A DNA stretch of 64,000 nucleotides from the NCBI RefSeq assembly GCF_003721515.1, contig NZ_RJJD01000004.1, positions 310,001 through 374,000 of the forward strand, read 5' to 3'. Shown here in pieces: positions 9,181-59,612 of the stretch. Under the pieces are notes generated by a model. It saw only the letters and a program-made list of their open reading frames with translations. It did no database searches and was not told the origin of the DNA. The translations under genes and the position numbers were made by a program. The stretch's first letter is position 1. Every line of letters starts with the position of its first letter. This stretch comes from Rufibacter latericius (GTDB lineage Bacteria; Bacteroidota; Bacteroidia; Cytophagales; Hymenobacteraceae).

Positions 9181-9216
9181 GTTTTAAGCCTGTTTTCGAG
9201 AAAATAAGCTTGGAAC
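9181..9216. repeat. 36-bp palindromic element, copy a
   Basis: Starts GTTTTAAGCCTG and ends GCTTGGAAC; the two 17-base arms match at 13 positions. Located 18 bp after the SulP stop. Confidence 0.7.
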
Positions 9217-9238
9217 TCTCCTTTTGTAGGGAAGATTC

Positions 9239-9270
9239 CGCTGGCGCGAGCTTCCGGCTCGTGTCTGCGC
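9239..9270 (-). repeat. 32-bp repeat, copy A
   Basis: Read on the minus strand it contains CACGAG, a short spacer and AAGCTCGCGCCAGCG. It is related to 9460-9491 and 11136-11167, all 32 bp long. Confidence 0.55.
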
Positions 9271-9297
9271 GCATTTGTGAATCGCTCTCCTAACCCT

Positions 9298-9410
9298 CTC
9301 CTCATTGTCATCCTGAAAGGACCATGTGGGCGAACGGCAGTAGCGCTTACGACAAAGCCTGTCTTGTTCGCCCATAAGATCTTTCCAAGAGAACAAAATG
9401 GGAGAGAGGA
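9298..9410. repeat. MITE-like imperfect inverted repeat
   Basis: Two ~40-bp arms face each other: the inner part is perfect (TGGGCGAAC at 9327-9335 with GTTCGCCCA at 9366-9374), and the outer parts match loosely (TCCTGAAAGGACCATG against its counterpart at 9375-9400). The centre is ~30 bp. No coding capacity; it has the shape of a small non-autonomous palindromic element. Confidence 0.45.
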
Positions 9411-9459
9411 GTATGGTATCTCATTACTGAAAGCGAGAAGCAGGCATGCGCTGGAATGC

Positions 9460-9491
9460 GTGCGGTCACGAGGTAGAGGCCCGCGCCAGCA
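9460..9491 (+). repeat. 32-bp repeat, copy B
   Basis: Contains GCGGTCACGAG and CCCGCGCCAGC. Related to copies at 9239-9270 (opposite orientation) and 11136-11167. Confidence 0.55.
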
Positions 9492-9527
9492 GAAGGCACT
9501 AAACAATAGTGGGAAGCCAAAAGCAAT

Positions 9528-9573
9528 AAGGCGTTTCGGGGCAGATAATGACAAATCTGCCCCGAAACGCCTT
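9528..9573 (-). terminator. Perfect 19-bp hairpin downstream of the beta-CASP nuclease
   Basis: Arms 9528-9546 and 9555-9573 pair perfectly with an 8-nt loop. It lies 22 bp past the stop of the minus-strand nuclease gene. No clean U-run follows. The outer arm carries GTTTCGGGG, like some 36-bp elements, so it may be a relative of that family. Confidence 0.7.
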
Positions 9574-9594
9574 CTTGCTGAAATTAAGCGAAAC

Positions 9595-10962
9595 TTACAC
9601 CACGTAAGATAACCGGAACTCCGGAATCTCGATGTTCTGGTAGCCCAGTTCTGATAAGTCATCCTTTAGCTGGCCCATCACTGATTTTTCGCCGTGCACC
9701 AGGAAAATCCGCTGGATTTTCTCTTTGTCCTGGCAGTGCAGGAACTTGGCGATGTCACCGTAGTCAGCGTGGGCGCTGTATTCCTTCATGATCAGCATCT
9801 CAGCTTTCACCTCCACCTCATCGCCCATGATGTAGACTTTCTCGGCACCGTTCATCAATTTGCCGCCCAGAGTGGAAGGCTCGCAGTAGCCGGTAATGAG
9901 CACCGCGCTGTTAGGATCGGAGAGGTTGGTTTTCAGGTGGTGCTGGATGCGGCCGGCCTCCATCATGCCCGAGGAGGAGATGATCACGCAAGGTTCGTCT
10001 ATCTTGTTCAACTCTTTGGAGTCATCCACCTCGGTGATGTAGGTGAGCTGCGGGAACCCGAACGGATCTGGGTCATCCTTAAGGTACTCCTGCATAGAAT
10101 CCCGGAAGTACTGCGGATTTTCGCGCATAATGTCCGTGGCGTAGACTGAGAGCGGACTGTCCACAAACACCTTCACATCCGGCAGGCGACCTTCCTCGGC
10201 CAGGTAGTTCAGCGAGTAAATGAGTTCCTGCGTACGCCCGATGCTGAACGCCGGAATGAGCAGTTTGCCTTGCCGCACCACGCAGACTTCCTGCACAATC
10301 TTCTGCAGACGTTCCTCGGTGTTCTCCAGACTGTCATGCACGCGGTTGCCGTACGTAGACTCACAGATGATGATCTCGGCCTGCGGAAACGCCTGCGGCG
10401 GATTCAGAATCCGGTTGGCAAACCGCCCGATGTCCCCGCTGAAGCAAAGAGTGCGTTTCCGTCCTTCGTCCTGCAGTTTCAGGTTGATGGCGGCGCTGCC
10501 CAACACGTGACCGGTATCGGTGAAAAGCAGTTCGATGTCTTCGTCTATCTGGTAGGGCTCGTCATAGGGAACGGTCACAAACTGCTGCAGGGCCTGCTCG
10601 GCATCTTCCTCTGAGTAGAGCGGGGCGGTGCTGCCATTCCCGTTGCTACTCTGAATGCGGGCACTGTCGCGGAGGAGGAGCTGGCAGAGTTCCAGGGTAG
10701 GTGGGGTGCAATAGATAGGGCCGCTGTAGCCCTCGTGCACCAACAACGGAATGAGCCCGGAATGGTCAATGTGCGCGTGCGAGAGAATGAGGCAAGTCAG
10801 ATTTTCGGGCTCGAAGTCAAAGGAGCGGTTCCGTTCCTCGGTTTTGTCGCCCATGCCCTGGGTCATGCCACAGTCCAGCAAAATGCGTTTCCCGTTCTCT
10901 AAAGTAATGAGGTGTTTGCTGCCAGTCACGGTCTGCGCCGCCCCGTAAAAAGATATCGTCAT
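9595..10962 (-). CDS. Metallo-beta-lactamase/beta-CASP RNA-processing nuclease
   Basis: A cytoplasmic zinc-dependent ribonuclease of the beta-CASP group (CPSF73/Ysh1-like architecture), 455 aa, the usual length. The metallo-beta-lactamase motif HAHIDH sits at residues 62-67, followed by the expected HVLGSA histidine and FSGDIG aspartate. The beta-CASP part shows the ISSSGMMEAGR loop and the late histidine in YSAHADY; the C-terminus (LVHGE) is the RNA-specificity region. It likely acts in RNA maturation or decay. Monocistronic on the minus strand, framed by repeats on both sides and a hairpin at 9528-9573. Confidence 0.93.
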   Translation of the reverse strand: MTISFYGAAQTVTGSKHLITLENGKRILLDCGMTQGMGDKTEERNRSFDFEPENLTCLILSHAHIDHSGLIPLLVHEGYSGPIYCTPPTLELCQLLLRDSARIQSSNGNGSTAPLYSEEDAEQALQQFVTVPYDEPYQIDEDIELLFTDTGHVLGSAAINLKLQDEGRKRTLCFSGDIGRFANRILNPPQAFPQAEIIICESTYGNRVHDSLENTEERLQKIVQEVCVVRQGKLLIPAFSIGRTQELIYSLNYLAEEGRLPDVKVFVDSPLSVYATDIMRENPQYFRDSMQEYLKDDPDPFGFPQLTYITEVDDSKELNKIDEPCVIISSSGMMEAGRIQHHLKTNLSDPNSAVLITGYCEPSTLGGKLMNGAEKVYIMGDEVEVKAEMLIMKEYSAHADYGDIAKFLHCQDKEKIQRIFLVHGEKSVMGQLKDDLSELGYQNIEIPEFRLSYVV

Positions 10963-11027
10963 AGAAAAGTAAGTCTGAATAGGTGGGAGTTGTACGGGCA
11001 GCAGTCTATTCAGATGCGAAAAATGCT

Positions 11028-11063
11028 GTTTTGAGGCAGATTTCTGGAAAACGAGCTGTAAAA
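11028..11063. repeat. 36-bp palindromic element, copy c
   Basis: Starts GTTTTGAGGCAG, with the TTTC/GAAA core and ending GAGCTGTAAAA. This copy is 65 bp upstream of the nuclease start, an exception to the usual 3' location. Confidence 0.6.
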
Positions 11064-11135
11064 GATGCCAAATTTACTTGATGCAAGTAGGATGACAAAG
11101 GGAGGAGAAGCAGGAGGGCTTTTGATCAGGAACAC

Positions 11136-11167
11136 CTGCGGTCACGAGTTGTAAGCTCGCGCTAGCG
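11136..11167 (+). repeat. 32-bp repeat, copy C
   Basis: Contains GCGGTCACGAG and AAGCTCGCGCTAGCG; third member of the 32-bp family. Just beyond it, GTAGGGGCAATCCC at 11193-11206 recurs exactly at 31857-31870. Confidence 0.55.
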
Positions 11168-11248
11168 TTGAAAGCTTCCTTCGCAAATTAACGTAGGGGC
11201 AATCCCTTGTGGTTGCCCTTTCTTCATGTGCAATTTCCCCTTAAACAG

Positions 11249-11294
11249 AAAAGCAGAAGCACCTGAACGATGATCGCCAGGTGCTTCTGCTTTT
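11249..11294. terminator. Terminator of the symporter-galK-galT operon
   Basis: A perfect 17-bp stem (11249-11265 with 11278-11294), 12-nt loop, U-rich on both exits. It lies 54 bp past the galT stop on the minus strand. Confidence 0.85.
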
Positions 11295-11306
11295 TATTGG
11301 AAATGT

Positions 11307-11342
11307 ATTTTAAGCCTGATTTTCCAGAAACAGGCGTAAAAC
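11307..11342. repeat. 36-bp palindromic element, copy d
   Basis: Arms contain TTTTAAGCCTG and CAGGCGTAAAAC. It sits 5 bp past the galT stop codon, before the terminator hairpin. Confidence 0.75.
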
Positions 11343-11347
11343 CGAAA

Positions 11348-12370
11348 TTATAGCAATGCTCTCAATCGTTCGGCCGCGCTCTCTGGAGTGATGTCGCGCT
11401 GAGGATCTGCCATGAGCTCGTAGCCCACCATGAACTTCTTCACCGAAGCCGATCTAAGCAGCGGTGGGTAGAAGTGCATGTGCAGGTGCCAGCCGGGATA
11501 GTCTTTCCCGTCGGTGGGTGCCTGGTGGATTCCGGCCGAGTACGGGAAGGAGGTCTGGAAGAGTTTATCGTAAACGCTAGAGAGGCGTTTCATGACATTG
11601 GCGTAGCCCAGTTTCTCCTCTTCGGAAATCTGGCCCAGGTGCCCGAAGTGCCGACGCGGGAGGACGATGGTCTCGAAGGGCCACACGGCCCAGAAGGGCA
11701 CCAGTGCCACGAAGTGCTCGTTCTTAATTACAATTCGGGTGTTCTCCTCCAATTCCTGGGCTAGGTAATCAGAGAGAAGGCTGCGGCCGTGCTCAGCGAA
11801 GTAAGCTTCCTGTTGCTCTGTTTCCTTGGCCGGGTCGCCGGGCACCGAACTCTGCGCCCAGATTTGGCCGTGCGGGTGTGGGTTGCTGCTGCCCATCACG
11901 CTGCCCTTGTTCTCGAAAATCTGCACGTAGGAGATGTAGTCCAGGGCACCAAGTTCCAGGTACTGTGCCTGCCACAGGTCCACCACTTTCTTGATCTCAG
12001 TGGTCTCCATATCAGACAAGGTCAGGTCATGGCGGGGCGAGAAGCAGATGACCTTGCAGATGCCGCGCTCGCTCTCGGCCCGCAGTAAGCCCGAGGAAAG
12101 GGAACCCGAGGGGCTCTCGGCCTGTAGGGCGGCGAAGTCGTTGGTGAACACAAAGGTGGAGGGGTAGGCTGGGTTCGCCTCGCCGTTGGCGCGCACGTTG
12201 CCCGGGCACAGGTAGCAGGTGGGATCAAACTGCGGACGGGTGTCTTTCTCGGTAGACTCCTGCTGTCCCTGCCAAGGGCGCTTGGAGCGGTGCGGCGAGA
12301 CCAGCACCCACTTCCCCAGTAGCGGGTTGAAGCGGCGGTGCGAGTGCTCGGTGATATCGAATGTATTCAT
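11348..12370 (-). CDS. galT: Galactose-1-phosphate uridylyltransferase
   Basis: Leloir-pathway enzyme that swaps UMP between UDP-glucose and galactose-1-phosphate, giving UDP-galactose and glucose-1-phosphate in the cytoplasm. The catalytic HPH triad is at residues 165-167 ([10 protein letters not shown]), matching the family's His-Pro-His. Zinc-type cysteines are at 52 and 55 (CYLCPG). The length, 340 aa, is typical, and the start [20 protein letters not shown] is the usual N-terminus. It is the last gene of a minus-strand operon, 36 bp after galK; no galE is present in the window. The ATG is preceded by AGAAACT, the same bases that precede galK. Confidence 0.97.
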
Positions 12371-12406
12371 AGTTTCTTCTGTAAGGAATGAGGGTGGGTT
12401 GCAGGT

Positions 12407-13573
12407 CTATCTTTTGGAAAAATCAATCGGAACCAGGCTGCTTCCGTCCACGATCTCGGCCACGTAGGTTTTCAGGGTGATGTTGTATTCCTGCTGGTAG
12501 GCCTCGGTCATCTGGCGGGTGAACTCGTCTATTTTGTCCAGGCGCACCAGGTTGATGGTACAGCCTCCGAAGCCGCCGCCCATCATGCGGGCACCCAGCA
12601 CCGCATCAGATTCTTTGGCTTTATCGGCCAGGAAATCCAACTCGGGGCAACTCACCTCGTAGTCATGCTGCAAACCTTGGTGTGAGGCGAACATCTTCTG
12701 CCCGAAGGCTTCCAGGTCACCGCGTTCCAGGTCTTGGCAAGCTTCCTCCACCCTTAGGTTTTCCTGCACCACGTAGGTGCAGCGGCGGTACACCACAGGG
12801 TCAAACTCGGTCTGGTGCTGCGTCAGCATCTCGGGGGTAACATCGCGCAGGCTATGGATTTCAGGGTAGTGTTTCTGCAGTAAGGCCACCCCGGTTTCAC
12901 ACTCCTGCCGACGGGTATTGTACTCACTGGAGGCCAGGGAGTGCTTCACCTGCGTATCGCAGAGCACGATACGGTAATCGTCAATGTTGAACGGATAGTA
13001 CTGGTACTCCAGGGAGCGGCAGTCCAACTTCACCACATGGTTGTGCTTCCCGAACATGCTGGCGAACTGGTCCATGATGCCACACATCACCAGCGCGTAC
13101 TCATGCTCGGCCTTCTGGGCCATTTTTACCATGTCAAACCGCTCAATGCCGTAGCCATACAGATAGTTCAGGGCATAAGCCAAACCGCATTCCACCGCCG
13201 CCGAGGAAGAAAGTCCGGCCCCAATGGGAATGTTACCCCCAAACACCAGGTCAAAGCCTTTTACCTCGTAATTCGCTTTCTGCAACTGTGCTACCACCCC
13301 CAGCAGGTAATTGGCCCAGCCAATGTCAGAGCGCTGTACCTGGGTGAGGTCAAACTCAGCGCTTTCCTCCAAGTCAAAGGCGTGGGCCCGCATGGTTTGG
13401 GTGCCGTTTGGCGCAATAGCGAAATAGATTTCCTTGTTGATGGCCGCCGGCAGCACAAAGCCTTCGTTGTAATCGGTGTGCTCGCCAATGAGGTTCACCC
13501 GGCCGGGGGACCGCGCCACAACCGGTTCGGTTTTATATAACTCCCTGAATCTAGCTACAATGTCTTCTACCAT
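12407..13573 (-). CDS. galK: Galactokinase
   Basis: GHMP kinase that phosphorylates galactose at C1 with ATP, entry step of the Leloir pathway. Visible motifs: the galactokinase signature GRVNLIGEHTDYNEG near the N-terminus, the phosphate loop PIGAGLSSSAA, and MMGGGFGGCTI near the C-terminus. I choose the ATG at 13573 (388 aa). A GTG at 13600 extends the frame by 9 residues but lies inside a perfect hairpin (13591-13628), and the bases AGAAACT before 13573 also precede galT. It lies between the Na+/sugar symporter and galT on one strand, so import, phosphorylation and uridylyl transfer are co-transcribed. Confidence 0.97.
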   Translation of the reverse strand: MVEDIVARFRELYKTEPVVARSPGRVNLIGEHTDYNEGFVLPAAINKEIYFAIAPNGTQTMRAHAFDLEESAEFDLTQVQRSDIGWANYLLGVVAQLQKANYEVKGFDLVFGGNIPIGAGLSSSAAVECGLAYALNYLYGYGIERFDMVKMAQKAEHEYALVMCGIMDQFASMFGKHNHVVKLDCRSLEYQYYPFNIDDYRIVLCDTQVKHSLASSEYNTRRQECETGVALLQKHYPEIHSLRDVTPEMLTQHQTEFDPVVYRRCTYVVQENLRVEEACQDLERGDLEAFGQKMFASHQGLQHDYEVSCPELDFLADKAKESDAVLGARMMGGGFGGCTINLVRLDKIDEFTRQMTEAYQQEYNITLKTYVAEIVDGSSLVPIDFSKR

Positions 13574-13590
13574 AGTTTCTGTTTTAAGAA

Positions 13591-13628
13591 CTGAAGGCAC
13601 AACACTTTGGTAAATGCTGTGCCTTCAG
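13591..13628 (-). promoter_or_regulatory. Perfect hairpin before galK
   Basis: An 11-bp perfect stem (13591-13601 with 13618-13628) in the symporter-galK gap. No U-run follows on the minus strand, so it looks like an mRNA processing or stabilising structure rather than a terminator. Confidence 0.55.
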
Positions 13629-13667
13629 GGGTTAACGTATTAAAAAGTCTTTTGATTTAGGTGCCTT

Positions 13668-15305: not shown

Positions 15306-15391
15306 AAGGTGGAGTGTGTGAGAGTTGCTTGTTAGTTGAAGTGAATGGTTGGTTTGGTGAAGTTATCGTTTAAATAGTATCTATTGAAATC

Positions 15392-15399
15392 CAAATATA
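15392..15399 (-). promoter_or_regulatory. Candidate -7 box for the symporter-gal operon
   Basis: On the minus strand this reads TATATTTG, a perfect match to the Bacteroidota TAnnTTTG element, 87 bp before the symporter ATG. I see no good TTTG at -33. Confidence 0.5.
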
Positions 15400-15407
15400 A
15401 CATTTTG

Positions 15408-16454: not shown

Positions 16455-16457
16455 TTC

Positions 16458-23433: not shown

Positions 23434-23485
23434 GAAGCAGTGTTTTTAGGCTATTTTCTGAAAAGGAAGCCTGAAATACTGCTTC
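23434..23485. repeat. 36-bp palindromic element, copy e, with extended 8-bp flanking stem
   Basis: The 36-bp core is 23442-23477. Flanking GAAGCAGT and ACTGCTTC extend the hairpin perfectly at its base. Lies 42 bp after the FG-GAP stop. Confidence 0.75.
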
Positions 23486-27515: not shown

Positions 27516-27551
27516 GTTTTGGCCTAGATTTTTGAAAAACAAGAGGAAAAC
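27516..27551. repeat. 36-bp palindromic element, copy g
   Basis: Starts GTTTTGGCCTAG, ends AAGAGGAAAAC; 60 bp after the GH172 stop. Confidence 0.7.
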
Positions 27552-31750: not shown

Positions 31751-31796
31751 AGGGTGTTTAGGGCCTGTTTTTACAAAAACAGGCCCTAAACACCCT
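31751..31796. repeat. 36-bp palindromic element, copy i: perfect 22-bp stem closing the PUL
   Basis: The 36-bp core (31756-31791) starts GTTTAGGGCCTG and ends CAGGCCCTAAAC. Five flanking bases on each side extend it to a 22-bp perfect stem with a 2-nt centre, followed by a pyrimidine-rich run. It very likely terminates the PUL transcript. Confidence 0.9.
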
Positions 31797-31900: not shown

Positions 31901-31936
31901 GTTTTAAGGCCGTTTTATGGAAATTGGGCCCGAAGC
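31901..31936. repeat. 36-bp palindromic element, copy j
   Basis: Starts GTTTTAAGGCCG, ends GGGCCCGAAGC; the second copy in the 338-bp spacer after the PUL. GTAGGGGCAATCCC at 31857-31870 just before it is identical to 11193-11206. No gene is seen in this spacer. Confidence 0.7.
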
Positions 31937-38722: not shown

Positions 38723-38758
38723 GTTTTAGCCTTATTTTCAGTAAACTACCCCTAAATC
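38723..38758. repeat. 36-bp palindromic element, copy l, between moxR and DUF58 gene
   Basis: Starts GTTTTAGCCTTA, ends ACCCCTAAATC. It lies 16 bp after the moxR stop and ends 9 bp before the likely DUF58 start, inside an otherwise continuous operon. Confidence 0.65.
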
Positions 38759-40140: not shown

Positions 40141-40176
40141 CTTTTTAACCTGTTTTCAGGAAAAGATCCTTAAAGC
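40141..40176. repeat. 36-bp palindromic element, copy m
   Basis: Starts CTTTTTAACCTG, ends GATCCTTAAAGC; 29 bp after the DUF58 stop. Arms are shorter and more diverged than in copies i and k. Confidence 0.6.
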
Positions 40177-43529: not shown

Positions 43530-45959
43530 TTATTTATTGATAAAGTATCTGGCCCTCAGGAAAAAGGAGCGGCCTGGCTTCTGAAGCATGAAGTTGTCAT
43601 AGAGTCTGCTGTCCGTTAGGTTGCGGCATTCCAGCGACAAGCCGTATTTGCCGTTTTGCAACGTGTAGTTGACCATGGCATTTTGGGCTAACTGACGCGG
43701 AATCACATCGTCATTGTTAAAGCCCAGGTGATGCGGGGTGAAGTAGTATTCCTCCACAAAATTCAAGCTGTAGTTCAGGGTGAGCACGTTGTCCTTGGCC
43801 CCTAGATCCGGGAAGGAGTAGCCTACTTCAGCATTCCCAAACAGGTAGGGCGTGTTAGGAATAGGGTAGTCATACCCCCAGTTTTTATTGATTTCAGTAC
43901 CCGTGAATTCCTTTTCAATGACGAAGAACTCCTCTTTGTCTATGATGTTCTGGTAGGTGAGGTTTAAGCCCATCTGGAACCTGTTTTTCCAGGCATAGCT
44001 GAGGCTACCTTCTACCCCGTTGGTGATCACGTTGCCGAAGTTGGAGTATTGCCGGGCGACAGGTTGGTTTTGTTGCTGGAACTGACGGATATAGTCACCC
44101 GAGTTGCGGTATAGGTAACTGGCTTCTACGCCGAATTGGTGATCCCTGCGGAGGGTGAAGGAATAATTGGCTCCTACGTTAATATTATCACTGCTCTCTG
44201 GTATAAGCAAAGAGTTGCCGATGACAAACAGCCCGTCTCCCAGTAGTTCAATAGCCTCTGGCAGGCGGTAGGCATGTTCATAAGAGGCTTTTAACTGCAG
44301 TTGGGGTAAGATAAACCCGGCCAGGGCGGCGCCATAACCCACGTACTGGTTTTGGGTTTCCACTGCCTGGTAAGAAGTAGTGTTGTTGGTCTTGTCGGTG
44401 CGTCCTTCAAACGAATGGGCGTCCAGCAGGTAGAGCTTGGAGAAAGCTGTGGCGTTAAACCGTTTCTTTTTCATTTGCCAGGCAAGGCCCAGAACTTGCT
44501 TCTTCAGGGATTGGGGATATTGGAACGTCACGTTCTGCGGATCTTCCACATCGCTTGATTTCCTTCCGAAATCAGATAACACATAGTTTAAGGAGAGAGA
44601 ATGGTCGGGCAAGATGGCGTAGTTCAGGTTAGCGGTTACCAAGCCTTCGTTGTCACGGTTCTTCAATTGTGTCCGGGTTGTTTCAGCCGCATCGGTTTGC
44701 TTTGTTTCCTGGTTCCAGTTGTATTTCAGGCGGGTAGTGTCTACCAGCCTGAACTGGGTCATGTTATAGGCGCTGTACAGGCTCACGTCCAGCCCTTTGA
44801 TCAAAAAGTCTGTTTTCCGATACTTCAGGGTAGGAATCACGGATGAGGAGCGGGAAGTCCTGGCCCCAAACACTTGTTCCATGGTGACGCCGGTCTGGAT
44901 TTCTTTATCGTTGCCAGAGGCAATGAGCCCTACTAAAAAAAGGTCTGCGTACTTTTTTCCGGTAACGCCTCCTTCCAATTGCAGGGTCCCGGATTTATAG
45001 GCGTCATGGAACCGCTCCACTTCCTTTGCCTCTTCCTTTTGGCTCGTGACTAGATTGATCGGGTTTACCAGTACCTTGTAATTGTTGTCTGAATAGTTAT
45101 AGAAAGCGTTTGCCCGGAACGTAAGTCCGTTTATGGGATTGGTAAAGGCACCGTTTATAGAGGCTTTGTGCGTATTGAAAGAGCCAGCGCCATAGGAAAG
45201 GTCCAGGAAATTGGGGTTAGACCGCGTCACGATGTTCACCGCACCGCCCAAAGCATCTGCCCCCAAATGGATAGGGAGTACGCCCTTGTAGACTTCTACC
45301 CGCTCCGCCATGGTCACCGGCAGGTTGTTGAGCGTGAGGGAAGACCCGAAGTTATCCATGGGAATGCCGTCCAGGAAGAATTTGACCTGTTTTCCGGAAA
45401 ACCCGTTCAAAGAGAAACTGAAGTCTGAGCCCACACCGCCTTCCTCCCGGATTCGGATTCCGGTGGTTCTGTTCAAGGCTTGGTTAAGATCAGCGGAAGT
45501 GCTGTACAGCTTTTTGGCATCCAGAACGGTGACATTGAAGCCCTCTTCCTTTACCATGGTATTCTGCGTTTTTCCGGTGACCAGAACCTCTTCCATGTCC
45601 AGGGTTCCTGACAAAACAATTGCCCCCAGATTGGTGGTGCGGCCTGCTGCTATCTGTATTAGGGCCGTTTTGGTAGAATACCCTACAAACGAAATAACCA
45701 GATCATAATCGCCCTCTGGAGCGGAAAGGGAGAAGTACCCCTCTGCATTGGTCTGGGCTACGGCTTCGGTACCTTTGATAAAAACGTTTGCAAACTCTAT
45801 AGCCTTGCTCCCAGAATCGGTCACTCTCCCTGAGACTGCTCCCGTATTTTGGGCATTTCCGGTAAAAGGAATGGAAAACAGGAAGAAAAAGAACAGAAAA
45901 AGTCTCTTTTCAAAGGAAGGAATAGGTTTTATAGAATGCCACCCTAGTAGTTCTCTCAT
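43530..45959 (-). CDS. TonB-dependent siderophore-type receptor (XusA-like)
   Basis: An outer-membrane receptor of 809 aa from the ATG at 45959; a TTG four codons upstream also keeps frame. The signal peptide (FLFFFFLFSIPFTGNAQ) is followed by a carboxypeptidase-regulatory-like domain (AVSGRVTDSGSKAIEFANVFIKG, ~40-120), a plug (EEVLVTGKTQNTMVKEEGFNV; GADALGGAVNIVTRSNP) and the barrel ending FFLRARYFINK. The plug is of the siderophore/cobalamin class, not the SusC class, and no SusD partner follows. Two inverted repeats with TTAGAAT half-sites lie upstream, as expected for Fur control. The gene order receptor-DUF4374-PepSY fits uptake of foreign siderophores. Confidence 0.93.
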   Translation of the reverse strand: MRELLGWHSIKPIPSFEKRLFLFFFFLFSIPFTGNAQNTGAVSGRVTDSGSKAIEFANVFIKGTEAVAQTNAEGYFSLSAPEGDYDLVISFVGYSTKTALIQIAAGRTTNLGAIVLSGTLDMEEVLVTGKTQNTMVKEEGFNVTVLDAKKLYSTSADLNQALNRTTGIRIREEGGVGSDFSFSLNGFSGKQVKFFLDGIPMDNFGSSLTLNNLPVTMAERVEVYKGVLPIHLGADALGGAVNIVTRSNPNFLDLSYGAGSFNTHKASINGAFTNPINGLTFRANAFYNYSDNNYKVLVNPINLVTSQKEEAKEVERFHDAYKSGTLQLEGGVTGKKYADLFLVGLIASGNDKEIQTGVTMEQVFGARTSRSSSVIPTLKYRKTDFLIKGLDVSLYSAYNMTQFRLVDTTRLKYNWNQETKQTDAAETTRTQLKNRDNEGLVTANLNYAILPDHSLSLNYVLSDFGRKSSDVEDPQNVTFQYPQSLKKQVLGLAWQMKKKRFNATAFSKLYLLDAHSFEGRTDKTNNTTSYQAVETQNQYVGYGAALAGFILPQLQLKASYEHAYRLPEAIELLGDGLFVIGNSLLIPESSDNINVGANYSFTLRRDHQFGVEASYLYRNSGDYIRQFQQQNQPVARQYSNFGNVITNGVEGSLSYAWKNRFQMGLNLTYQNIIDKEEFFVIEKEFTGTEINKNWGYDYPIPNTPYLFGNAEVGYSFPDLGAKDNVLTLNYSLNFVEEYYFTPHHLGFNNDDVIPRQLAQNAMVNYTLQNGKYGLSLECRNLTDSRLYDNFMLQKPGRSFFLRARYFINK

Positions 45960-52293: not shown

Positions 52294-52395
52294 GCCATTG
52301 GCCTTTCCCGTAAAACCATAGAGTCTCTAGCCCATGGATTCTGTCTTTCCAGGGCATACTTGATCAACAAAGTAGAAGGACAAAATATGCCTGGG

Positions 52396-53205: not shown

Positions 53206-53215
53206 GATACTAGTT

Positions 53216-53345
53216 TTTAAAACTGTGAATAGATTCTTTTATCTCTTAGAATTTGGCTGATAAAAGATGATTTCAAGGTATTTAAAACTGTGAATAGATT
53301 CTTTTATCTCTTAGAATTTGGCTGATAAAAGATGATTTCAAGGTA
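53216..53345. repeat. Perfect 65-bp tandem duplication
   Basis: 53216-53280 and 53281-53345 are identical (unit begins TTTAAAACTGTGAATAGATT). It is the leader of the minus-strand gene at 53205. The absence of any mismatch suggests a recent event; it may duplicate a promoter or a regulator site. Confidence 0.9.
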
Positions 53346-53879
53346 TTGTGATCGAGAGTCAACAAGTAGCGCAAGGAAGTTCTTGTGGAAGGGGCGGCTT
53401 TCAATGTGAATAGAAGCGACGGATTGAATTTCCGCAAGGGAGGATTTCTGTTTTGGAGAGCATGTAGCGTTCTGAAATGCTTCTACTCAGGTAAGGAGTA
53501 TTTCAGAAGAAAATGAAAGCAGGCCGGGCGGTTGTTGCTGCCAGGCAAAGGCTCTCATACAAAAAGTCGAGAAGATGAACCCAAACAGAGGAATGGCACA
53601 GGCATCGGAACCGTTGGCCTGCAGCACGGCACCATTGGAAGTGCCCATGGGAGGAAAGAGTCTACCGAATTTACAAAATCCTTTATACAGCTGGAAGATT
53701 AATCTTGCCTTTTTCAGGCCTAGTTTTAGTAGAAGACTATTTTTCTAAGCTTGCGTTTAGAAAGTAGAGTGGAAAAAGCTTCTCTTAGTAAAGGCAGGAA
53801 CAAATATTTCCAGAAGCTTTCTTATTCCTTGGAAATGCCTGTAGGTGAGATTAAGTTAAAGGATGTGTGTAATTAAAAA
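53346..53879. other. Noncoding spacer left of the tRNA-Asn fragment
   Basis: No gene that I can support. It holds an inverted repeat, TTCTGAAAT at 53470-53478 and ATTTCAGAA at 53500-53508, and nothing else recognisable. Confidence 0.5.
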
Positions 53880-53911
53880 AGCCACTTACAAGTTTTACCT
53901 CGTAAGTGGCT
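53872..53911 (-). terminator. Terminator of the former tRNA-Asn gene
   Basis: A 10-bp stem (53880-53889 with 53902-53911), U-run on the minus strand. It lies just past the tRNA 3' end, as expected for the ancestral tRNA transcription unit. Confidence 0.7.
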
Positions 53912-53921
53912 GATTTAGAAG

Positions 53922-53968
53922 CTCCCCCTCTTGGGCTCGAACCAAGGACCCCATGATTAACAGTCATG
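53922..53968 (-). pseudogene. 3' fragment of tRNA-Asn(GTT), probable attachment site
   Basis: Read on the minus strand: a 5-bp anticodon stem CATGA/TCATG closes CTGTTAA (anticodon GTT), then a variable loop, then a complete T arm (CTTGG TTCGAGC CCAAG) and acceptor strand AGGGGGA. The D arm and the 5' acceptor strand are absent: the sequence right of 53968 does not pair. Such a fragment is what remains at one end of an element integrated into a tRNA gene; the intact tRNA should lie at the other end. Confidence 0.8.
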
Positions 53969-54079
53969 TTAATAGTAGTTTTGGTTGGTTGCAATTATTT
54001 GTAAAAACCGCTTGTTTTAGCGTAGAGGCTGTTTTATGATCATGTTTAATCATAGGTATCTGTAGGTTTTTTGATGAAA

Positions 54080-54101
54080 TGTATGCAAATTGTATGCAAA
54101 T
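54080..54101. repeat. Tandem 11-bp direct repeat before the integrase
   Basis: Two perfect copies of TGTATGCAAAT (54080-54090, 54091-54101), 17 bp before the integrase start; possible integrase arm-type or promoter-region binding site. Confidence 0.5.
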
Positions 54102-54118
54102 AATAATCTTATAACAGC

Positions 54119-55348
54119 GTGGCTAACGTACTAACCCAAATCATTCTTGATACCAGAAGGTCGTTGAAGGATAGCACCTTTCCTGTCAAGCTAAGGCTGA
54201 CCTATAACCGCAAGCAGAAATACTACCCCACAGCTTACAGCTTTACAGAAGAGGATTACGAGAAAGTGATACTCTCAAAACCTAAAGGGGCTTATAAAGA
54301 TGCCCAGTTTGAGCTAAAGGAAATAGAGAAGAGGGCTAGAGCAATTATCAAGGATATGGCTGTATTTACATTTGACCTATTTGAGAAAAAGTTTGTAGAT
54401 ACATCTCCTAAAGGAGATGTGTTTATAGCTTTTAGCCAGCATATAGCAAAACTAAAAAGGGAGGCTAGCATAACCACAGCGGAAAGCTATACGTCGGCCC
54501 TAAACTCACTGAAAGCCTTTACTGGGAAAACAGTCCTGCCTTTTGTAAACGTAACTCCTGACTACCTTTCTAGTTATGAGCAGTGGATGCTCAGTAAGAA
54601 TAAGTCTCTTACGACAGTGGGTATTTATCTGCGCTATCTAAGGGCATTGTTTAACGAGGCAATAGAAGCTGGAGACGTAGAGCAGAGGCAATATCCTTTT
54701 GGTAAGAGAAAGTACCAGATACCAGCAGGCCGCAATGTGAAAAAGGCCCTCACTATAGCAGACATTGAGAAAATAGTTACTTATGCTCCTAAAAGTGATA
54801 GTGAAGCAAAAGCTAGAGATTTATGGCTGTTTTCTTATCTGTGCAGTGGTATAAATGTAAAGGATATTGCACTACTTAAGTACAAGAACATAGACTCTGC
54901 TACCATTACCTTTGTGCGTGCTAAAACTGCAAAGTCTACTCGCCAGAATACTAAGTCAATAATAGTGTCCCTCTTGCCAGAAGCTGAGCATATTATAATG
55001 AGGTGGGGTAACAAGCCAGTTATTCCGAATTGGTATGTGTTTCCTATACTTTCTGAGGGGCTTACCCCAGAAAAGGAGTTGGCTAAGATTAAGCAAGCAA
55101 CGAAGTCAATAAATACCTATATGAAGCGTATAGCTTCATCTTTAGGCATAGAGAAAGAGGTTACCACATACACAGCACGCCACTCTTATTCTACAGTTTT
55201 AAAGCGCTCTGGTGCCCCAATAGAGTTTATAAGTGAGTCTTTAGGGCATACCGACATACGTACTACCAGAAGTTATCTAGATAGCTTTGAGGATGACGCA
55301 AAGCGTGGGTATGTCTCTGCGCTTACAGCTTTTCCTAAGAAAGATTAG
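54119..55348 (+). CDS. Tyrosine recombinase (integrase) of Bacteroidota mobile-element type
   Basis: A 409-aa site-specific integrase. It uses a GTG start; stop codons (TAA TAA) lie five codons upstream. The N-terminal arm-binding domain (MANVLTQIILDTRRSLKDSTFPVKLRLTYN) and SAM-like core-binding domain (~100-190) precede the catalytic domain. Catalytic residues visible: Arg354-His355 (TARHSYST), His377 (LGHTDIRTT) and nucleophile Tyr386 (RSYL). At the usual first-Arg position the sequence reads SGINVKD (Asn246), a substitution also known in the Bacteroides conjugative-transposon integrase IntDOT. Adjacent to the tRNA-Asn fragment, which is probably its target. Confidence 0.94.
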   Translation: MANVLTQIILDTRRSLKDSTFPVKLRLTYNRKQKYYPTAYSFTEEDYEKVILSKPKGAYKDAQFELKEIEKRARAIIKDMAVFTFDLFEKKFVDTSPKGDVFIAFSQHIAKLKREASITTAESYTSALNSLKAFTGKTVLPFVNVTPDYLSSYEQWMLSKNKSLTTVGIYLRYLRALFNEAIEAGDVEQRQYPFGKRKYQIPAGRNVKKALTIADIEKIVTYAPKSDSEAKARDLWLFSYLCSGINVKDIALLKYKNIDSATITFVRAKTAKSTRQNTKSIIVSLLPEAEHIIMRWGNKPVIPNWYVFPILSEGLTPEKELAKIKQATKSINTYMKRIASSLGIEKEVTTYTARHSYSTVLKRSGAPIEFISESLGHTDIRTTRSYLDSFEDDAKRGYVSALTAFPKKD

Positions 55349-55410
55349 GAGTAAGTCAAGCTAGGTGTGAGCCATTAAGAGATTATAGAGGCGAAACTGG
55401 GGGCGGGATA

Positions 55411-55590
55411 AACGTCACTACGTATTCGGCCCAACACTCCTCCTCCGCCGTGCTGAAGCGGGCGGGGGTATCCACAGCCGCCATTTCCGAGGCGTTGAGG
55501 CACTCCTCCGAGCGGACCACCCAGAGCTATCTGGACAGCTTCGAGGACGAGGTGAAGCATCGGATCGCCTCTCACCTGACGGATTTCTGA
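55411..55590 (+). pseudogene. C-terminal fragment of a second tyrosine recombinase
   Basis: The frame from 55411 to the stop at 55590 encodes 59 residues (VTTYSAQHSSSAVLKRAG, RHSSERTTQSYLDSFEDEV) aligning with the end of the intact integrase (VTTYTARHSYSTVLKRSG, GHTDIRTTRSYLDSFEDDA). The catalytic Arg is Gln (AQH), and the rest of the gene is missing. It is strikingly GC-rich, unlike the intact integrase 60 bp upstream but like the genes downstream. It looks like the original integrase of the GC-rich module, mostly deleted. Confidence 0.85.
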
Positions 55591-55638
55591 CCATTATTAT
55601 TTTATTCATACTTCTGCTAGTTTTTGCTTACAAAGCTC

Positions 55639-55646
55639 TATATTTG
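55639..55646 (+). promoter_or_regulatory. Candidate -7 promoter box
   Basis: TATATTTG, a perfect TAnnTTTG match 63 bp before the ATG at 55710. A second similar box (CATATTTG) follows shortly after. Confidence 0.45.
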
Positions 55647-55709
55647 TAACTATTCATATTTGGATTATAATAAAACAAATGTGAATCGGTAGGAATATAA
55701 ATGTGAACT

Positions 55710-56315
55710 ATGAAAGATGCAGAAGAAGAAGAAAAAGAGAAATTGCCTGGTGATGGAGGAGAAGACTTCCCTGTTGACTTGGATAATCTTAAAGATTTGT
55801 TCTTTTACCTTGAGGCAATTGCAGAGTTAGGGGGGTACCAATGCTGCTACGACAGTCCTGAGGTCTTCAAGAAAATACCAGGGCGGGGTAAGGGACTTTT
55901 CCTTCGGGACCTTGCTCCCGTCATGCTCTCCCGATTGGCTTGGATGAAGGCAATTCTTGTAAAAGATGAGAAAGCCGAAAAAGTAAAGGCTGGCTTAATG
56001 GCGATCTGCGTCCAGGAGCCGGAAGCATTCGTGCTGGCTCTATGCCTTCACTATCTCCAGAAGGCTAAGATCATAGATCATTTTACTGGGGGAGGGACAT
56101 TGAAGGAAATAGAGGCCATATTGTTAATGTGCCCGCACCTCAAGAACCCAAGGCATTTCCTTAAGCATTACCGCAGTATTCCAGATAACCCAGAGGCCTT
56201 TATCGAGTTTGTTTCACTCGAAAGACTAGAGGCGGTCAAGAATTTGTTGTGGGAATTTCCTGATGCTCAATCAATTGCAAGAATTGATTTTCTGAAGAAG
56301 TTGGGCAGGGGTTAA
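55710..56315 (+). CDS. Hypothetical 201-aa element protein
   Basis: No family recognised. The N-terminus is strongly acidic (KDAEEEEKEKLPGDGGED) and the rest reads as an alpha-helical globular protein with a central part rich in hydrophobic helices (DLAPVMLSRLAWMKAILVKDEK; AFVLALCLHYLQKAKIIDHF) and a basic end (ARIDFLKKLGRG). No membrane helix or signal peptide. It is the first of three plus-strand genes leading to the RepA-like ATPase and is likely part of the element's maintenance module. Confidence 0.7.
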   Translation: MKDAEEEEKEKLPGDGGEDFPVDLDNLKDLFFYLEAIAELGGYQCCYDSPEVFKKIPGRGKGLFLRDLAPVMLSRLAWMKAILVKDEKAEKVKAGLMAICVQEPEAFVLALCLHYLQKAKIIDHFTGGGTLKEIEAILLMCPHLKNPRHFLKHYRSIPDNPEAFIEFVSLERLEAVKNLLWEFPDAQSIARIDFLKKLGRG

Positions 56316-56365
56316 GGGCAGGGGCTATCGAGAGAACTGCAAAAAGTTTGCCGTAGAATTGCGGC

Positions 56366-56722
56366 ATGTTGAACACGAGAAAGGCGACGGAAAATCCATT
56401 CGCCGCAATAGATGAGAGGCTCAGCGGTCTGGAAAGGATCTCGCTGGAGCTATGCAAATTGTTCCACGCCCAAACCGGGGGAAGCCCTGACGCCGAGCGG
56501 CCGCTCAGCGCCCAGGAAGCCTCCGAGTTCCTAGGCATCCCCAAGAATACCCTCTACGCGCTGACAAGCCGCCGGGAGATCCCCTTCTGCAAGCGGGGGA
56601 AACAGCTGTTCTTCTTCCGGAAGGACCTGCTGGGGTGGCTCGACGGGGGGCGCCAGAGGACAGCCGCCGAGGTGCGGGCAGGCGCGATCGGATCGTTGGG
56701 CACCAAAAGGGGGAGGGCGTAA
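56366..56722 (+). CDS. Excisionase-like helix-turn-helix DNA-binding protein
   Basis: A 118-aa protein. The C-terminal ~65 residues are a MerR/excisionase-type winged helix (PLSAQEASEFLGIPKNTLYALTSRREIPFCKRGKQLFFFRKDLLGWLDG). The N-terminal ~50 residues form an amphipathic helix typical of this group. Such proteins in Bacteroidota elements bind att or origin DNA and steer excision or control. It ends 3 bp before the RepA-like gene, so they are co-translated; the GC content is much higher than that of the integrase. Confidence 0.88.
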   Translation: MLNTRKATENPFAAIDERLSGLERISLELCKLFHAQTGGSPDAERPLSAQEASEFLGIPKNTLYALTSRREIPFCKRGKQLFFFRKDLLGWLDGGRQRTAAEVRAGAIGSLGTKRGRA

Positions 56723-56725
56723 GCG

Positions 56726-57991
56726 ATGGCGAACGACCTTTACCCAGACGGTGGAACCCAGGGTGAGACCCGGGGCCGGATCCAGAGCGCACGGGCCCAA
56801 TCCTCAAGGGCGTACAACGCCAGGGACGGCCCAGTCGAACCGGGCTTATACCGCCGATACGCCACGGAAGCCCAAGAGGGTTTCGTGAATGGCTCAACCG
56901 GTGAACTCCTTCTCCCCTTCGGGGGAGGAGGAATACCGGAGCCTTCCTTAACTTCCTTGAGGATACATGAGATGGCGGAGCGGGCGTTGATCGACCTTGA
57001 CCAAGTACAACCCGAGCCGGAGAGGTTCCTCACCCTTGCCCAAGCAGGGGAAACCTTCACCCTCGGCACCGCCGGCAACTTCTCCCTGGTGACAGGCAAG
57101 GCCAAGAGCCGGAAAACCTTCTTCACCACCATGCTCATCGCCTCGGCCCTGGCTGGAGAGACTGCGGAGGGTGTGATCCGCGGGTGCCTGCCCTATGGAA
57201 AAGAGGGAGTGTTGCTCTTCGACACCGAGCAGGGGCACCATCACGTCCAGATGGCAGCCAGGAGAGCCGTAACCTTGGCTGGGCCTGAGGCGATCGGCTG
57301 GTTGGAAACCTACAGCCTCCGCGCCTATAGCCCGGTCGACCGGCTGGCCGTGATCGAGTACCTTCTGTTAAGTACCCCAGGGGTGGGCTTGGTGGTCATT
57401 GACGGTATCCGCGACCTTGTGACCTCTATCAACGACGAGGAGCAGGCCAGCATGCTCATGGGCAAGCTCCTGAGGTGGTCAAAAGAACTGGGTATCCACA
57501 TCGTGGTTGTCCTGCACCAGAACAAGGGGGACAGCAACGCCCGCGGGCATCTCGGCACAGAGGCGAACAACAAGGCCGAGATCGTTATCTCCGTCACCCT
57601 GGATAAGAACAAAGGCTCCTCATCCGCTAAGGTGGAGTGCTCCCGGGAGTTGGGGTTCAGCCCCTTCTCCTTCACCGTCAACGAGGAGGGCCTCCCGATG
57701 ATCGTTGAGAGGGACGAGTCAGCGGAGGGTAAACCCGCTAAAAGGGGAAAACGGGAGATTCCGCCCGAGACCATGCGGGGCATGCTGGACCGGATCTTCG
57801 ACCTGCATCCTAACCCGAAGTACGGTGAGTTGGCCAAATATCTGATGGAACAGGCTGCCGGGGAGGATTACCCGATCACACTGACTAAGGCCAAGACCCT
57901 GGTCTCGGACCTCAAGGCTAAGGGGGAGATAAGGGTCGAAGGCAAGGAAGGGACCAGGTACTCCTACTACGTGCTGGAGTTACCGTTCTAG
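56726..57991 (+). CDS. RepA-like AAA ATPase (RecA-fold replication protein)
   Basis: A 421-aa protein with an AAA_25/RepA-type RecA fold. Walker A is atypical: TGKAKSRKT (residues 123-131) has Arg where the consensus Gly-Lys-Thr has Gly, a variant I have seen in Bacteroidota mobile elements. Walker B is GLVVIDGIRDL (~221-231); VLHQNKGDSNARGHLGTEANNKAEIVISV (~263-292) is the sensor/hexamer-type region. The C-terminal ~90 residues are helical and may be a winged-helix (YPITLTKAKTLVSDLKAKGEIRVEG). Inferred role: replicative helicase-like protein for a circular intermediate of the element. No primase or relaxase is seen nearby. Confidence 0.85.
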   Translation: MANDLYPDGGTQGETRGRIQSARAQSSRAYNARDGPVEPGLYRRYATEAQEGFVNGSTGELLLPFGGGGIPEPSLTSLRIHEMAERALIDLDQVQPEPERFLTLAQAGETFTLGTAGNFSLVTGKAKSRKTFFTTMLIASALAGETAEGVIRGCLPYGKEGVLLFDTEQGHHHVQMAARRAVTLAGPEAIGWLETYSLRAYSPVDRLAVIEYLLLSTPGVGLVVIDGIRDLVTSINDEEQASMLMGKLLRWSKELGIHIVVVLHQNKGDSNARGHLGTEANNKAEIVISVTLDKNKGSSSAKVECSRELGFSPFSFTVNEEGLPMIVERDESAEGKPAKRGKREIPPETMRGMLDRIFDLHPNPKYGELAKYLMEQAAGEDYPITLTKAKTLVSDLKAKGEIRVEGKEGTRYSYYVLELPF

Positions 57992-58674
57992 TTTTACTGT
58001 AGCTGGCCCCTTTTATATATAGGGGCCTGCACAGTAAACCAGTAACCGGTAACCTCGGGCAGCTCAGTGCGAGGGTGTATCGGCATGGGAAAAAGAAGGA
58101 TGATGACAGAAGACGCAGTCTGCAGTTTTGTAATTTTATTTGATGGGTGCCGATATAATCCCTGGGAAAGAACCCTGGAGCCGACACCCCGTGGAGGCGA
58201 CTCAACAACGGAGTTGTTGATTCGGCAGAGCAATGTCCATTTCATTCCCATTCTCTGCCACCGGTTCTCTTGTGGGGTAAAATATCGGCACAACACAAGT
58301 TGGAATAAATGACAGAGTGATATGCTGTATAATATTAGGATTAGGCTGAAAACCCAATAAGTACCTAATGATCCAGTAAAGCTTTATGCCGACACTAAAC
58401 GCTAGACGAAACCGCTGCTGAAACTCACCTAGGACCCACCTTAACTGCGAAAAGACTGCTAATTAGCGAAAAGCGCCCTTGGCGGAGCCATGCCTGAGCG
58501 GAAATGGCTATCAATGCAACAGGTGCAAACATCCTGATAAGAAATGCTACAATATGGATATGACTTGGGGAGGCATTTAGCCGCCCCGGGCATGGGCAGG
58601 GCACCGCCATGCTCTGACTTACCTAAAAGTAACACTTAACAAGAATAACTTAGCTTTTAACAAAATCCATAAAC
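57992..58674. other. Structured noncoding region after the RepA-like gene
   Basis: No protein gene fits this 683-bp stretch. Hairpins are visible: 57996-58035 (imperfect, GGCCCC/GGGGCC core), 58203-58219 (CAACAAC/GTTGTTG) and 58588-58615 (GGGCATGG with CCATGCTC). This could be the element's replication or transfer origin, or a structured RNA. I found no hammerhead or group II intron core. Confidence 0.45.
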
Positions 58675-59256
58675 ATGGAAAAAAATACAGAAAACGAGCA
58701 GCAGTGGGATGAAGATGAATCTCACGAACTGATGGACCAGAAGATGAGAGAAGAGGAAGCCCACCTCGCAGAGGTGATGTTTGTAACCAGGATGTCCGTC
58801 CGGGTGGTTCAGAGACAACTTTTTTACTACGAAATTGACTCGGATTACCAGGAGCAGACAGACCCTGGCCGCGCTGACTCCGTGGAGACGGAGCAAAGCG
58901 TAGAACTGGAGCAATACGAAGAGCTGCTGTCCCTGGTTAGAAGACTGGAGGCGGCCCGCGCTAAAGGGACCATGACAAACGAAAGCCTGAAAGACCCTAA
59001 TGGTTCGGTTAACAAGAGGATTCATGATGAGATGGGGCAGTATGGGAACGTGTTCCAGGTGGCGCAGGAGGTCCTTGAGATGGCAAAGCACGAACTGGAC
59101 ATGTCGTATGGGGATATCTCGGACATGCGTTCTATGAGGGCGCGGAATAAACCCGGTTTCATGCAGCAGGATTTCCTTGCAACGCTGGATTGGAATGAAA
59201 GCCTACAGGTACTCATTGGGAAACTGCAGGAAATTCAAAAGAAGGGCTATCTTTAA
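58675..59256 (+). CDS. Hypothetical 193-aa acidic helical protein
   Basis: No family recognised. The N-terminal third is strongly acidic (ENEQQWDEDESHELMDQKMREEEAH), then an amphipathic region (VTRMSVRVVQRQLFYYEID), then heptad-like stretches suggesting coiled coil (~75-95 ELEQYEELLSLVRRLEAARAK; ~128-145). No signal peptide or membrane helix. It lies behind the structured region and before two terminator-like hairpins, so it is probably a single-gene unit. The cargo gene of the element is a possibility. Confidence 0.65.
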   Translation: MEKNTENEQQWDEDESHELMDQKMREEEAHLAEVMFVTRMSVRVVQRQLFYYEIDSDYQEQTDPGRADSVETEQSVELEQYEELLSLVRRLEAARAKGTMTNESLKDPNGSVNKRIHDEMGQYGNVFQVAQEVLEMAKHELDMSYGDISDMRSMRARNKPGFMQQDFLATLDWNESLQVLIGKLQEIQKKGYL

Positions 59257-59279
59257 GACCTACTTGTAAAGGTTGTAAT

Positions 59280-59314
59280 ACATGGCTTGGGTGCTTATGG
59301 TGCCCAAGCCATGT
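59280..59314 (+). terminator. Hairpin after the 193-aa gene
   Basis: A perfect 12-bp stem (59280-59291 with 59303-59314) 23 bp past the stop, without a U-run. Confidence 0.6.
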
Positions 59315-59373
59315 CCCTCCGGTACGTATCCGAAAAGGGGTGCTACTCCCTACGCGACCACAGTTATAATTAC

Positions 59374-59406
59374 AAAAGCCTGTAAGCTAACCGCTTACAG
59401 GCTTTT
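59374..59406. terminator. Rho-independent terminator
   Basis: A 14-bp perfect stem (59374-59387 with 59393-59406), 5-nt loop, T-run on the plus strand and A-run to the left. Confidence 0.85.
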
Positions 59407-59576
59407 TCTTTTCTATGCGTACACATATATGGACAACTTCTGAATACCTGCTGCCTTATATCTCTTAGAGAGACCTGTATTAAGGTGCGTAATTTTCTGC
59501 GAATCTCCCCTTTTTACCCACCAAAGAGCCAAGAAAAAGTAGCTTGTACAAGGGAGACCTTTGTGTTTTCACCTTT

Positions 59577-59612
59577 GATTTACGGCCGATTTTCTGAAAA
59601 TGCCTCCAAAAC
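59577..59612. repeat. 36-bp palindromic element, copy q
   Basis: Starts GATTTACGGCCG, has the TTTTCTGAAAA core and ends CCTCCAAAAC; 113 bp past the GH97 stop (minus strand). Its presence marks a return to the ancestral chromosome right of the mobile element. The rest of 59407-59725 holds no gene. Confidence 0.65.

What the first reader, a model, noticed from the sequence alone, without database searches (positions are those of the whole stretch)
9181..59612. Dispersed 36-bp palindromic 3'-end element, about 15 copies
Seen directly: copies of constant 36-bp length at 9181, 11028, 11307, 23442, 26152, 27516, 28823, 31756, 31901, 33071, 38723, 40141, 40861 and 59577, with a doubtful one at 7300. 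The left half is like GTTTTAGGCCTG, the centre like TTTTCTGGAAAA, the right half like CAGGCCCTAAAC. Copies diverge in sequence but keep arm pairing and length. Most lie 5-115 bp past a stop codon, on either strand; two (31756, 33071) extend into long hairpins that look like terminators. None lie in genes or in the mobile element. The pattern suggests a selected 3'-UTR/terminator family or a REP-like element.
Basis: seen in the sequence. Interest (0 to 1): 0.72.

Follow-up and report, generated by a model that had tools for sequence, protein, structure and literature searches.

The report
Rufibacter's dialect-shifting 36-bp dyad mark
Bacteria of the genus Rufibacter carry thousands of copies of a fixed-length, mirror-symmetric DNA signal, mostly outside genes and often just after them, that stays in the same places while its spelling changes between species, as if one unknown protein reads them all.

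Summary
The repeats are real and far more numerous than reported: 537 sites in 800 kb of the same genome against 25 in a reversed control, roughly 3,400 per genome by extrapolation. Length is rigid: altering the spacing removes over 90% of hits. So this is not an RNA-hairpin or REP family but a dyad of two largely independent half-sites with four T/A tracts. Sites crowd gene ends, most of all convergent ones. As far as searched, only Rufibacter (with Sabulibacter) has them. Sites keep the same intergenic places across species, yet R. immobilis and species G012 write them in sharp, different dialects of about 50 bits. Between dialects, orthologous sites are no more alike than random ones. I read this as the target of an unidentified genus-specific dimeric DNA-binding protein co-evolving with its sites; chromosome organisation at gene ends is my first choice, an uptake-signal-like self mark the main rival. 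No reader protein was found, and eight literature searches found no paper on it.

The parts
9181..9216 (.). dyad site, 32.5 bits, 18 bp after a gene end
11028..11063 (.). dyad site, 30.0 bits, in the gap between two minus-strand genes
11307..11342 (.). dyad site, 34.6 bits, 5 bp after the stop of the minus-strand gene 11348-12370
23442..23477 (.). dyad site, 32.9 bits
26152..26187 (.). dyad site, 33.9 bits; site in the same gap in G003 and G398
27516..27551 (.). dyad site, 26.8 bits
28823..28858 (.). dyad site, 32.3 bits; site in the same gap in G003 and G398
31756..31791 (.). dyad site, 37.9 bits, 16 of 16 arm pairs; part of a longer hairpin
31901..31936 (.). dyad site, 33.7 bits
33071..33106 (.). 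dyad site, 33.8 bits, 14 of 16 arm pairs, in a longer hairpin between convergent genes; site in the same gap in G398
38723..38758 (.). dyad site, 29.9 bits; site in the same gap in G003 and G398
40141..40176 (.). dyad site, 32.5 bits
40861..40896 (.). listed copy, weak (16.0 bits)
45378..45413 (.). site inside a called gene, 23.0 bits
59577..59612 (.). dyad site, 31.7 bits

Best explanation
The element is a double-stranded DNA recognition site with two inverted half-sites (GTTTT-7 bp-TTTT, then 4 central bases, then the mirror image), read by one dimeric sequence-specific protein special to Rufibacter. Each subunit reads one half: shown only indirectly, by rigid dyad spacing, scarcity of lone halves, near-independence of the halves and dependence of positions within a half. 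The sites are kept at gene ends in orthologous places (shown). The most likely job (inferred) is chromosome organisation or insulation at the ends of transcription units by the bound protein. Roughly 0.75 for 'dimeric protein target', about 0.55 for the architectural role given that.
For: Matrix from 537 sites: tract positions up to 96% conserved, arms weak. Between-tract positions of the halves independent in G000. In sites of 45 bits or more, mean linkage of non-symmetric positions across halves is near zero (z 0.66 in G012, 0.33 in G004) against 4.92 and 2.63 within a half. Strong halves without a partner: 4 of 331 (G012) and 16 of 295 (G004), and many of the 16 have an old-type partner. 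Rigid spacing. Convergent gaps of 80-299 bp hold a site of 15 bits or more in 41 of 46, codirectional 107 of 174, divergent 22 of 53. 29 of 200 codirectional sites start within 10 bp of the stop against 10.2 expected. Presence shared at orthologous gaps (stratified z 2.6-9.1 in 6 species pairs) and same place within 3 bp in 27-74% against 6-12% shuffled. Dialects. Tract-core change 9.6% against 17.1% for other intergenic A/T. Coding sites avoid the neighbourhood of intergenic ones (26 of 125 within 500 bp against 40.2 +- 5.1).
Against: No reader protein identified; PF00216 and PF18291 (HU families) show no genus-wide expansion. Information in the sharp dialects (49-53 bits) far exceeds the about 11 bits needed to find the sites, odd for an architectural protein. 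Site-bearing gaps are hardly more evenly spread than label permutation gives (CV P 0.41; gaps over 4 kb P 0.01). The halves are not fully independent: slightly more alike than chance in G000 (11.41 differences against 11.78 +- 0.08), G003 and G004, less alike in G012, with symmetric coupling at positions 0, 6, 9, 10, 13 in G012 and in the flanks in G004. G012 and G004 hold more identical whole 36-mers than re-paired halves give (37 against 13.6; 34 against 25.8). The outer tract bases 2, 5, 32, 35 and bases 13, 24 do not change more slowly than background (0.209). Free 3' space alone could produce the gene-end bias.
Confidence: 0.42

Rival explanations
1. Uptake-signal-like self mark: the dyad is preferred by a DNA-uptake receptor, accumulates by biased transformation (molecular drive), and dialects shift when the receptor changes, as for DUS in Neisseriaceae.
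For: Thousands of copies, genus restriction, dialects, near-perfect copies with far more information than needed. Passages of PMC3630211 report 1294 occurrences of DUS in dyad symmetry in Simonsiella muelleri, with a suggested dimer-based recognition, and inverted DUS pairs at terminators. ComEC is in 9 of 9 genomes. Natural competence and a preference for own DNA are reported for Riemerella columbina, another Bacteroidota (PMC7965970, passages).
Against: No type IV pilus/T2SS ATPase (PF00437) over its cut-off in 4 of 4 Rufibacter genomes searched, while 13 of 14 control genomes have one. 36-46 bp with an obligatory dyad is much longer than DUS/USS (recalled). Coding sites are rare in the sharp dialects (4 of 179, 6 of 190). 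ComEC is equally present in sister genera without sites. I ran no search for reports of transformation in Rufibacter.
Confidence: 0.3
2. REP/MITE-type mobile repeats copied by a RAYT-like transposase, with species-specific waves.
For: Genus-restricted high copy number; near-identical copies in G004 and G012; more identical whole 36-mers than re-paired halves give (37 against 13.6 in G012, 34 against 25.8 in G004); Y1_Tnp proteins in 4 of 4 Rufibacter genomes, one in G012 flanked by sites.
Against: Little linkage between halves beyond symmetric positions and the centre; no flank homology among identical copies (0.250 against 0.256; 0.249 against 0.251); orthologous positions across deep divergence; hybrid sites with one old and one new half; GTAG or CGTC rare near the ends; Y1_Tnp also in 4 of 5 sister-genus genomes without sites.
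Confidence: 0.1
3. Transcription terminators, intrinsic or by a protein roadblock.
For: Location after stops and in convergent gaps; 44 of 179 R. immobilis sites sit in flank-extended hairpins against 6.4 expected, and of 41 of these next to a gene end 12 have a T-rich tail. In an unmasked scan terminator-like hairpins not overlapping the site make up 51 of 117 site-bearing convergent gaps, against 17 of 21 gaps without a site.
Against: Arms do not co-vary in most copies. The T-tracts lie in the 5' arm and A-tracts end the 3' arm on either strand (sequence). With sites masked (and 36 random bases masked in site-free gaps) hairpins remain in 65 of 117 convergent gaps with a site and 5 of 21 without, codirectional 65 of 349 and 17 of 214: sites accompany terminators rather than replace them, though the random mask may break terminators in short gaps. 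Sites also occur in coding sequence in degenerate dialects.
Confidence: 0.08

Closest known systems
DNA uptake sequence dialects of Neisseriaceae (DUS) and Pasteurellaceae USS
   Same: Many copies per genome, restricted taxon, species dialects, some dyad arrangements and association with terminators (PMC3630211, passages)
   Different: Here 36-46 bp with rigid dyad and few lone halves, T/A tracts, almost purely intergenic in the sharp dialects, and no type IV pilus ATPase detected
REP/BIME/REPIN elements with RAYT transposases
   Same: Extragenic, palindromic consensus, high copy number
   Different: No end tag, nearly independent halves, little copying signature, orthologous positions, in-place dialect change
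Sequence-specific nucleoid or chromosome-organising sites (matS, parS, IHF/HU sites; recalled)
   Same: Dyad or A-tract sites dispersed on the chromosome and read by a dimer
   Different: Far more copies and information per site, genus-restricted and changing between species; HU families not expanded
Intrinsic terminators
   Same: 3' position; a minority sit in longer hairpins
   Different: No arm covariation in most copies, and separate terminator-like hairpins nearby

Membership tests
DNA uptake sequences (DUS/USS) | Highly over-represented motif with species dialects | tested here: met
DNA uptake sequences (DUS/USS) | Type IV pilus-type uptake machine in the host | tested here: not met
   PF00437: no match over cut-off in G000, G003, G004, G012; one family only was searched
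DNA uptake sequences (DUS/USS) | Enhances uptake or transformation | not testable with these tools
   needs a transformation assay
REP elements / REPINs | Terminal GTAG or CGTC tag (PMC3733652, passages) | tested here: not met
   GTAG near an end in 18 of 484 and CGTC in 13 of 484 sites of G000, 2-9 of 179-221 in the others (no chance expectation was computed)
REP elements / REPINs | Stem-loop with complementary arms | tested here: not met
   arms pair hardly better than re-paired halves; 14 of 537 pair at all seven middle positions against 1.2 expected
REP elements / REPINs | Associated RAYT transposase | tested here: inconclusive
   Y1_Tnp in 4 of 4 Rufibacter and 4 of 5 sister-genus genomes; one in G012 has sites on both sides, as many genes do
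Intrinsic terminators | Covarying stem followed by a T-run | tested here: not met
   met by a minority only
HU/IHF-family target sites | Genus-specific HU-like reader | tested here: not met
   PF00216 and PF18291: 1-2 matches per genome, the same in sister genera, except one strong PF18291 protein in G012 alone

The most novel reading that the evidence does not exclude
Rufibacter marks a large share of its transcription-unit ends with a 36-46 bp dyad read by a genus-specific dimeric protein, and that protein's specificity has changed repeatedly, dragging thousands of orthologous sites with it half-site by half-site: a bacterial case of genome-wide concerted co-evolution between one protein and its chromosomal mark, outside transformation.
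Probability: 0.35. Interest if true: 0.9.

Novelty: new variant of a known kind. Interest (0 to 1): 0.72.

Why it matters
Thousands of sites that stay put while their sequence changes together between species of one genus pose a direct question: what rewrites some 2,000 sites in place? (0.46-0.49 sites per kb in R. immobilis and G012, times genomes of 4.7-4.8 Mb.) Either answer is useful: an uptake-like self mark in Bacteroidota, which I do not know to be described (recalled, not established by a search), or a chromosome-organising system whose reader and sites evolve together.

Tried and rejected
RNA-hairpin and REP readings: disfavoured by near-independent halves and missing tags. Rfam scan of the window: 0 families at gathering score. 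Plasmid and phage collections: only weak matches (E 1 to 4) to one site with flanks (a short query, so a weak test). HU, HU-HIG, Y1_Tnp, T2SSE and ComEC families gave no genus-specific reader. Evenness of spacing: an apparent strong effect (CV 0.95 against 1.19 +- 0.05) nearly vanished with a gap-matched null (P 0.41). G008 has few, weak sites (167 pattern hits; about 5 distinct in its sample), perhaps decaying; not pursued. In the half-site scan of G000 (threshold 11 bits) 321 of 1066 halves had no partner, but the reversed control gave 320 hits, so that scan says nothing on lone halves there. Gene calls come from my own script (582 genes, coding fraction 0.80 in 800 kb) and miss genes, for example window ORFs 1804-4110 and 4835-7198, so 'intergenic' is over-counted. 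Literature: eight searches listed no paper on these repeats; the library holds open-licence PMC papers only. Papers seen as passages only: PMC3630211, PMC7965970, PMC3733652; all others as search listings.

Full report
What is there. The window lies on contig C19 of a 5.67-Mb genome. The organism is therefore taken to be a Rufibacter (Bacteroidota, Hymenobacteraceae). All 14 listed copies are present.

Number and shape. A symmetric weight matrix seeded with the 14 window copies was run on 800 kb of contig C23: 491 sites against 22 in the reversed sequence in the first round, 537 against 25 after iteration. At 14 bits there are 483 sites, about 3,400 per genome by extrapolation. The most conserved columns are in T-tracts at 2-5 and 13-16 and A-tracts at 21-24 and 32-35, with G and C at the two ends; the seven bases between outer and inner tracts are weak. 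Inserting or removing bases at the dyad or in the arms cuts hits of 13 bits or more from 501 to 5-34. The 34 belong to a one-base-shorter dyad and may include real 35-bp variants.

Not a hairpin in most copies. Across 537 sites, Watson-Crick matches between the arms equal those of re-paired halves at the between-tract positions (for example 0.425 against 0.414 at pair 11/26). The exact centre pairs less than chance (0.201 against 0.268) and the three flanking bases more (z 3.6-5.0). 14 sites pair at all seven middle positions, against 1.2 expected: a terminator-like minority. Over 23 positions the two halves of one site are slightly more alike than halves of different sites in G000, G398, G003 and G004 (for example 11.41 against 11.78 +- 0.08 differences in G000) and less alike in G012 (7.18 against 6.77 +- 0.11). 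In the 14 listed copies the pairing excess disappears without the two hairpins. In sharp-dialect sites of 45 bits or more (150 in G012, 116 in G004), positions within a half depend on each other (mean z 4.92, 2.63), while non-symmetric positions across halves on average do not (0.66, 0.33). Symmetric positions 0, 6, 9, 10 and 13 in G012, the flanks in G004 and the centre in both do show coupling, which tells against full independence there.

Where. Of sites at 25 bits or more, 83% are wholly outside called genes (263 of 317). Convergent gaps of 80-149 and 150-299 bp carry a site of 15 bits or more in 20 of 23 and 21 of 23; codirectional 32 of 68 and 75 of 106; divergent 1 of 9 and 21 of 44. 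In codirectional gaps 29 of 200 sites start within 10 bp of the stop against 10.2 expected, and only 15 of 200 end within 40 bp of the next start against 41.4. Weaker sites in coding sequence exceed altered-spacing controls (122 against 2-14) and avoid the 500 bp around intergenic sites (26 of 125 against 40.2 +- 5.1). Evenness of spacing beyond gene layout is weak. Terminator-like hairpins: in an unmasked scan of five genomes 82 of 117 convergent gaps with a site and 17 of 21 without have one; 31 of the 82 overlap the site, and the reversed control gives 26 of 117 and 0 of 21. With sites masked (36 random bases masked in site-free gaps) the figures are 65 of 117 and 5 of 21, controls 10 and 1. 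So gene ends with a site usually seem to have a terminator of their own, but the scan is crude.

Who has it. The core pattern TTTT-N8-TTT-N4-AAA-N8-AAAA gives 73-1476 hits in 13 of 13 genus members searched first, with 1-6 for the reversed pattern. In 72 genomes of five other genera of the family it gives 0-5 (control 0-7). The other 311 genomes of the order are mostly near their reversed controls; exceptions such as G073 (223 against 116), G122 (37 against 7) and G147 (34 against 3) were not studied further.

Dialects. Some are small (5-11 sites in G007, G008, G006 and R. glacialis), and those taken from pattern-matched loci are biased in density. Sharpness varies from 22 to 53 bits over 46 bp. 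Most read like GTTTT.GG.CTGTTTT. R. immobilis reads GTTTAGGGGCTGTTTTTC; G012 reads TTTCC-GTTTTCGGGCTCATTTCC. On a tree from five window proteins the two are apart: G012 next to R. ruber (support 0.34), R. immobilis near G008 and G397. In R. immobilis half-sites fall into two classes, new and old: of 186 sites 104 have both halves new, 38 are mixed, 8 have both old and 36 have at least one ambiguous half; the frequencies fit independent halves (97 both-new expected). The three diagnostic bases change together (237 halves with all three against 161 expected, 44 with none against 5). Mixed sites carry one full new half and one old-type half of 17 or 18 bases.

Same places, different words. Orthologous intergenic gaps share presence or absence: G003/G398 88 both, 6 discordant of 136; G003/G012 37 both, 7 discordant of 63. 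Stratified by gap class z is 2.6-9.1 in six pairs, and single sites lie at the same distance (within 3 bp) from a flanking gene in 27-74% (of 15-58 pairs) against 6-12% for shuffled pairs. Within one dialect (G003/G398) orthologous sites are more alike than random ones (0.78 against 0.59). Between dialects they are not (0.64/0.63, 0.62/0.62, 0.65/0.64, 0.65/0.64, 0.61/0.61). In 83 G003/G398 site alignments the tract core changes at 9.6%, the other tract bases at 20.9%, other intergenic A/T at 17.1%, between-tract bases at 25.2%, and deleted bases are fewer in sites (2.2% against 4.9%): only the tract core is visibly held.

Reading. A dimeric protein that reads two half-sites explains the rigid dyad, the nearly independent halves, the scarcity of lone halves (4 of 331, 16 of 295) and the within-half dependence. 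A change of its preference explains in-place dialect change. I did not find it: HU families are not expanded, and a genome-wide profile was out of reach. The information content (49-53 bits against about 11 needed) is the strongest hint that something beyond plain binding, such as biased transformation, drives the sharp dialects. The uptake rival stays open, although PF00437 is missing, while ComEC is present in all nine genomes. Mobile copying is disfavoured, although G012 and G004 have more identical whole 36-mers than re-paired halves give (37 against 13.6, 34 against 25.8).

Known or not. Eight literature searches listed nothing on such repeats in Rufibacter or its family; the library holds open-licence PMC papers only. 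The nearest description I saw is DUS dialects, with dyad-arranged DUS in Simonsiella (PMC3630211, passages).

Noticed in passing
   Followed up: partly
G012:C1 about 2556780-2594225 (37 kb): Site-free island, G+C 0.42 against 0.51 in the whole stretch, 3 of 19 called genes with orthologues in the other held stretches: probably imported DNA.
   Followed up: no
window 9533-9568: A palindrome with well paired arms but without the inner T/A tracts (19.4 bits), 26 bp from a gene end: perhaps an ordinary terminator-like hairpin.
   Followed up: no
   Followed up: partly
G147, G122, G073 (other genera of the order): Raised counts of the core pattern; the listed G147 hits are near-identical copies of another sequence (34 against 3 in control).
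   Followed up: no
L216 (Pontibacter harenae, 4953-bp contig): One exact pattern match on a tiny contig; may be cross-contamination from a Rufibacter.
   Followed up: no
R. immobilis (G004) sites: 44 of 179 sites have at least 6 of 8 flanking bases complementary, so they lie at the centre of longer inverted repeats made of non-repeated flanking sequence.
   Followed up: partly
G012:C1:1936694-1937047: A strong HU-HIG (PF18291) protein seen in G012 but not in the four other Rufibacter genomes searched; G012 is one of the two species with a sharp dialect.
   Followed up: no
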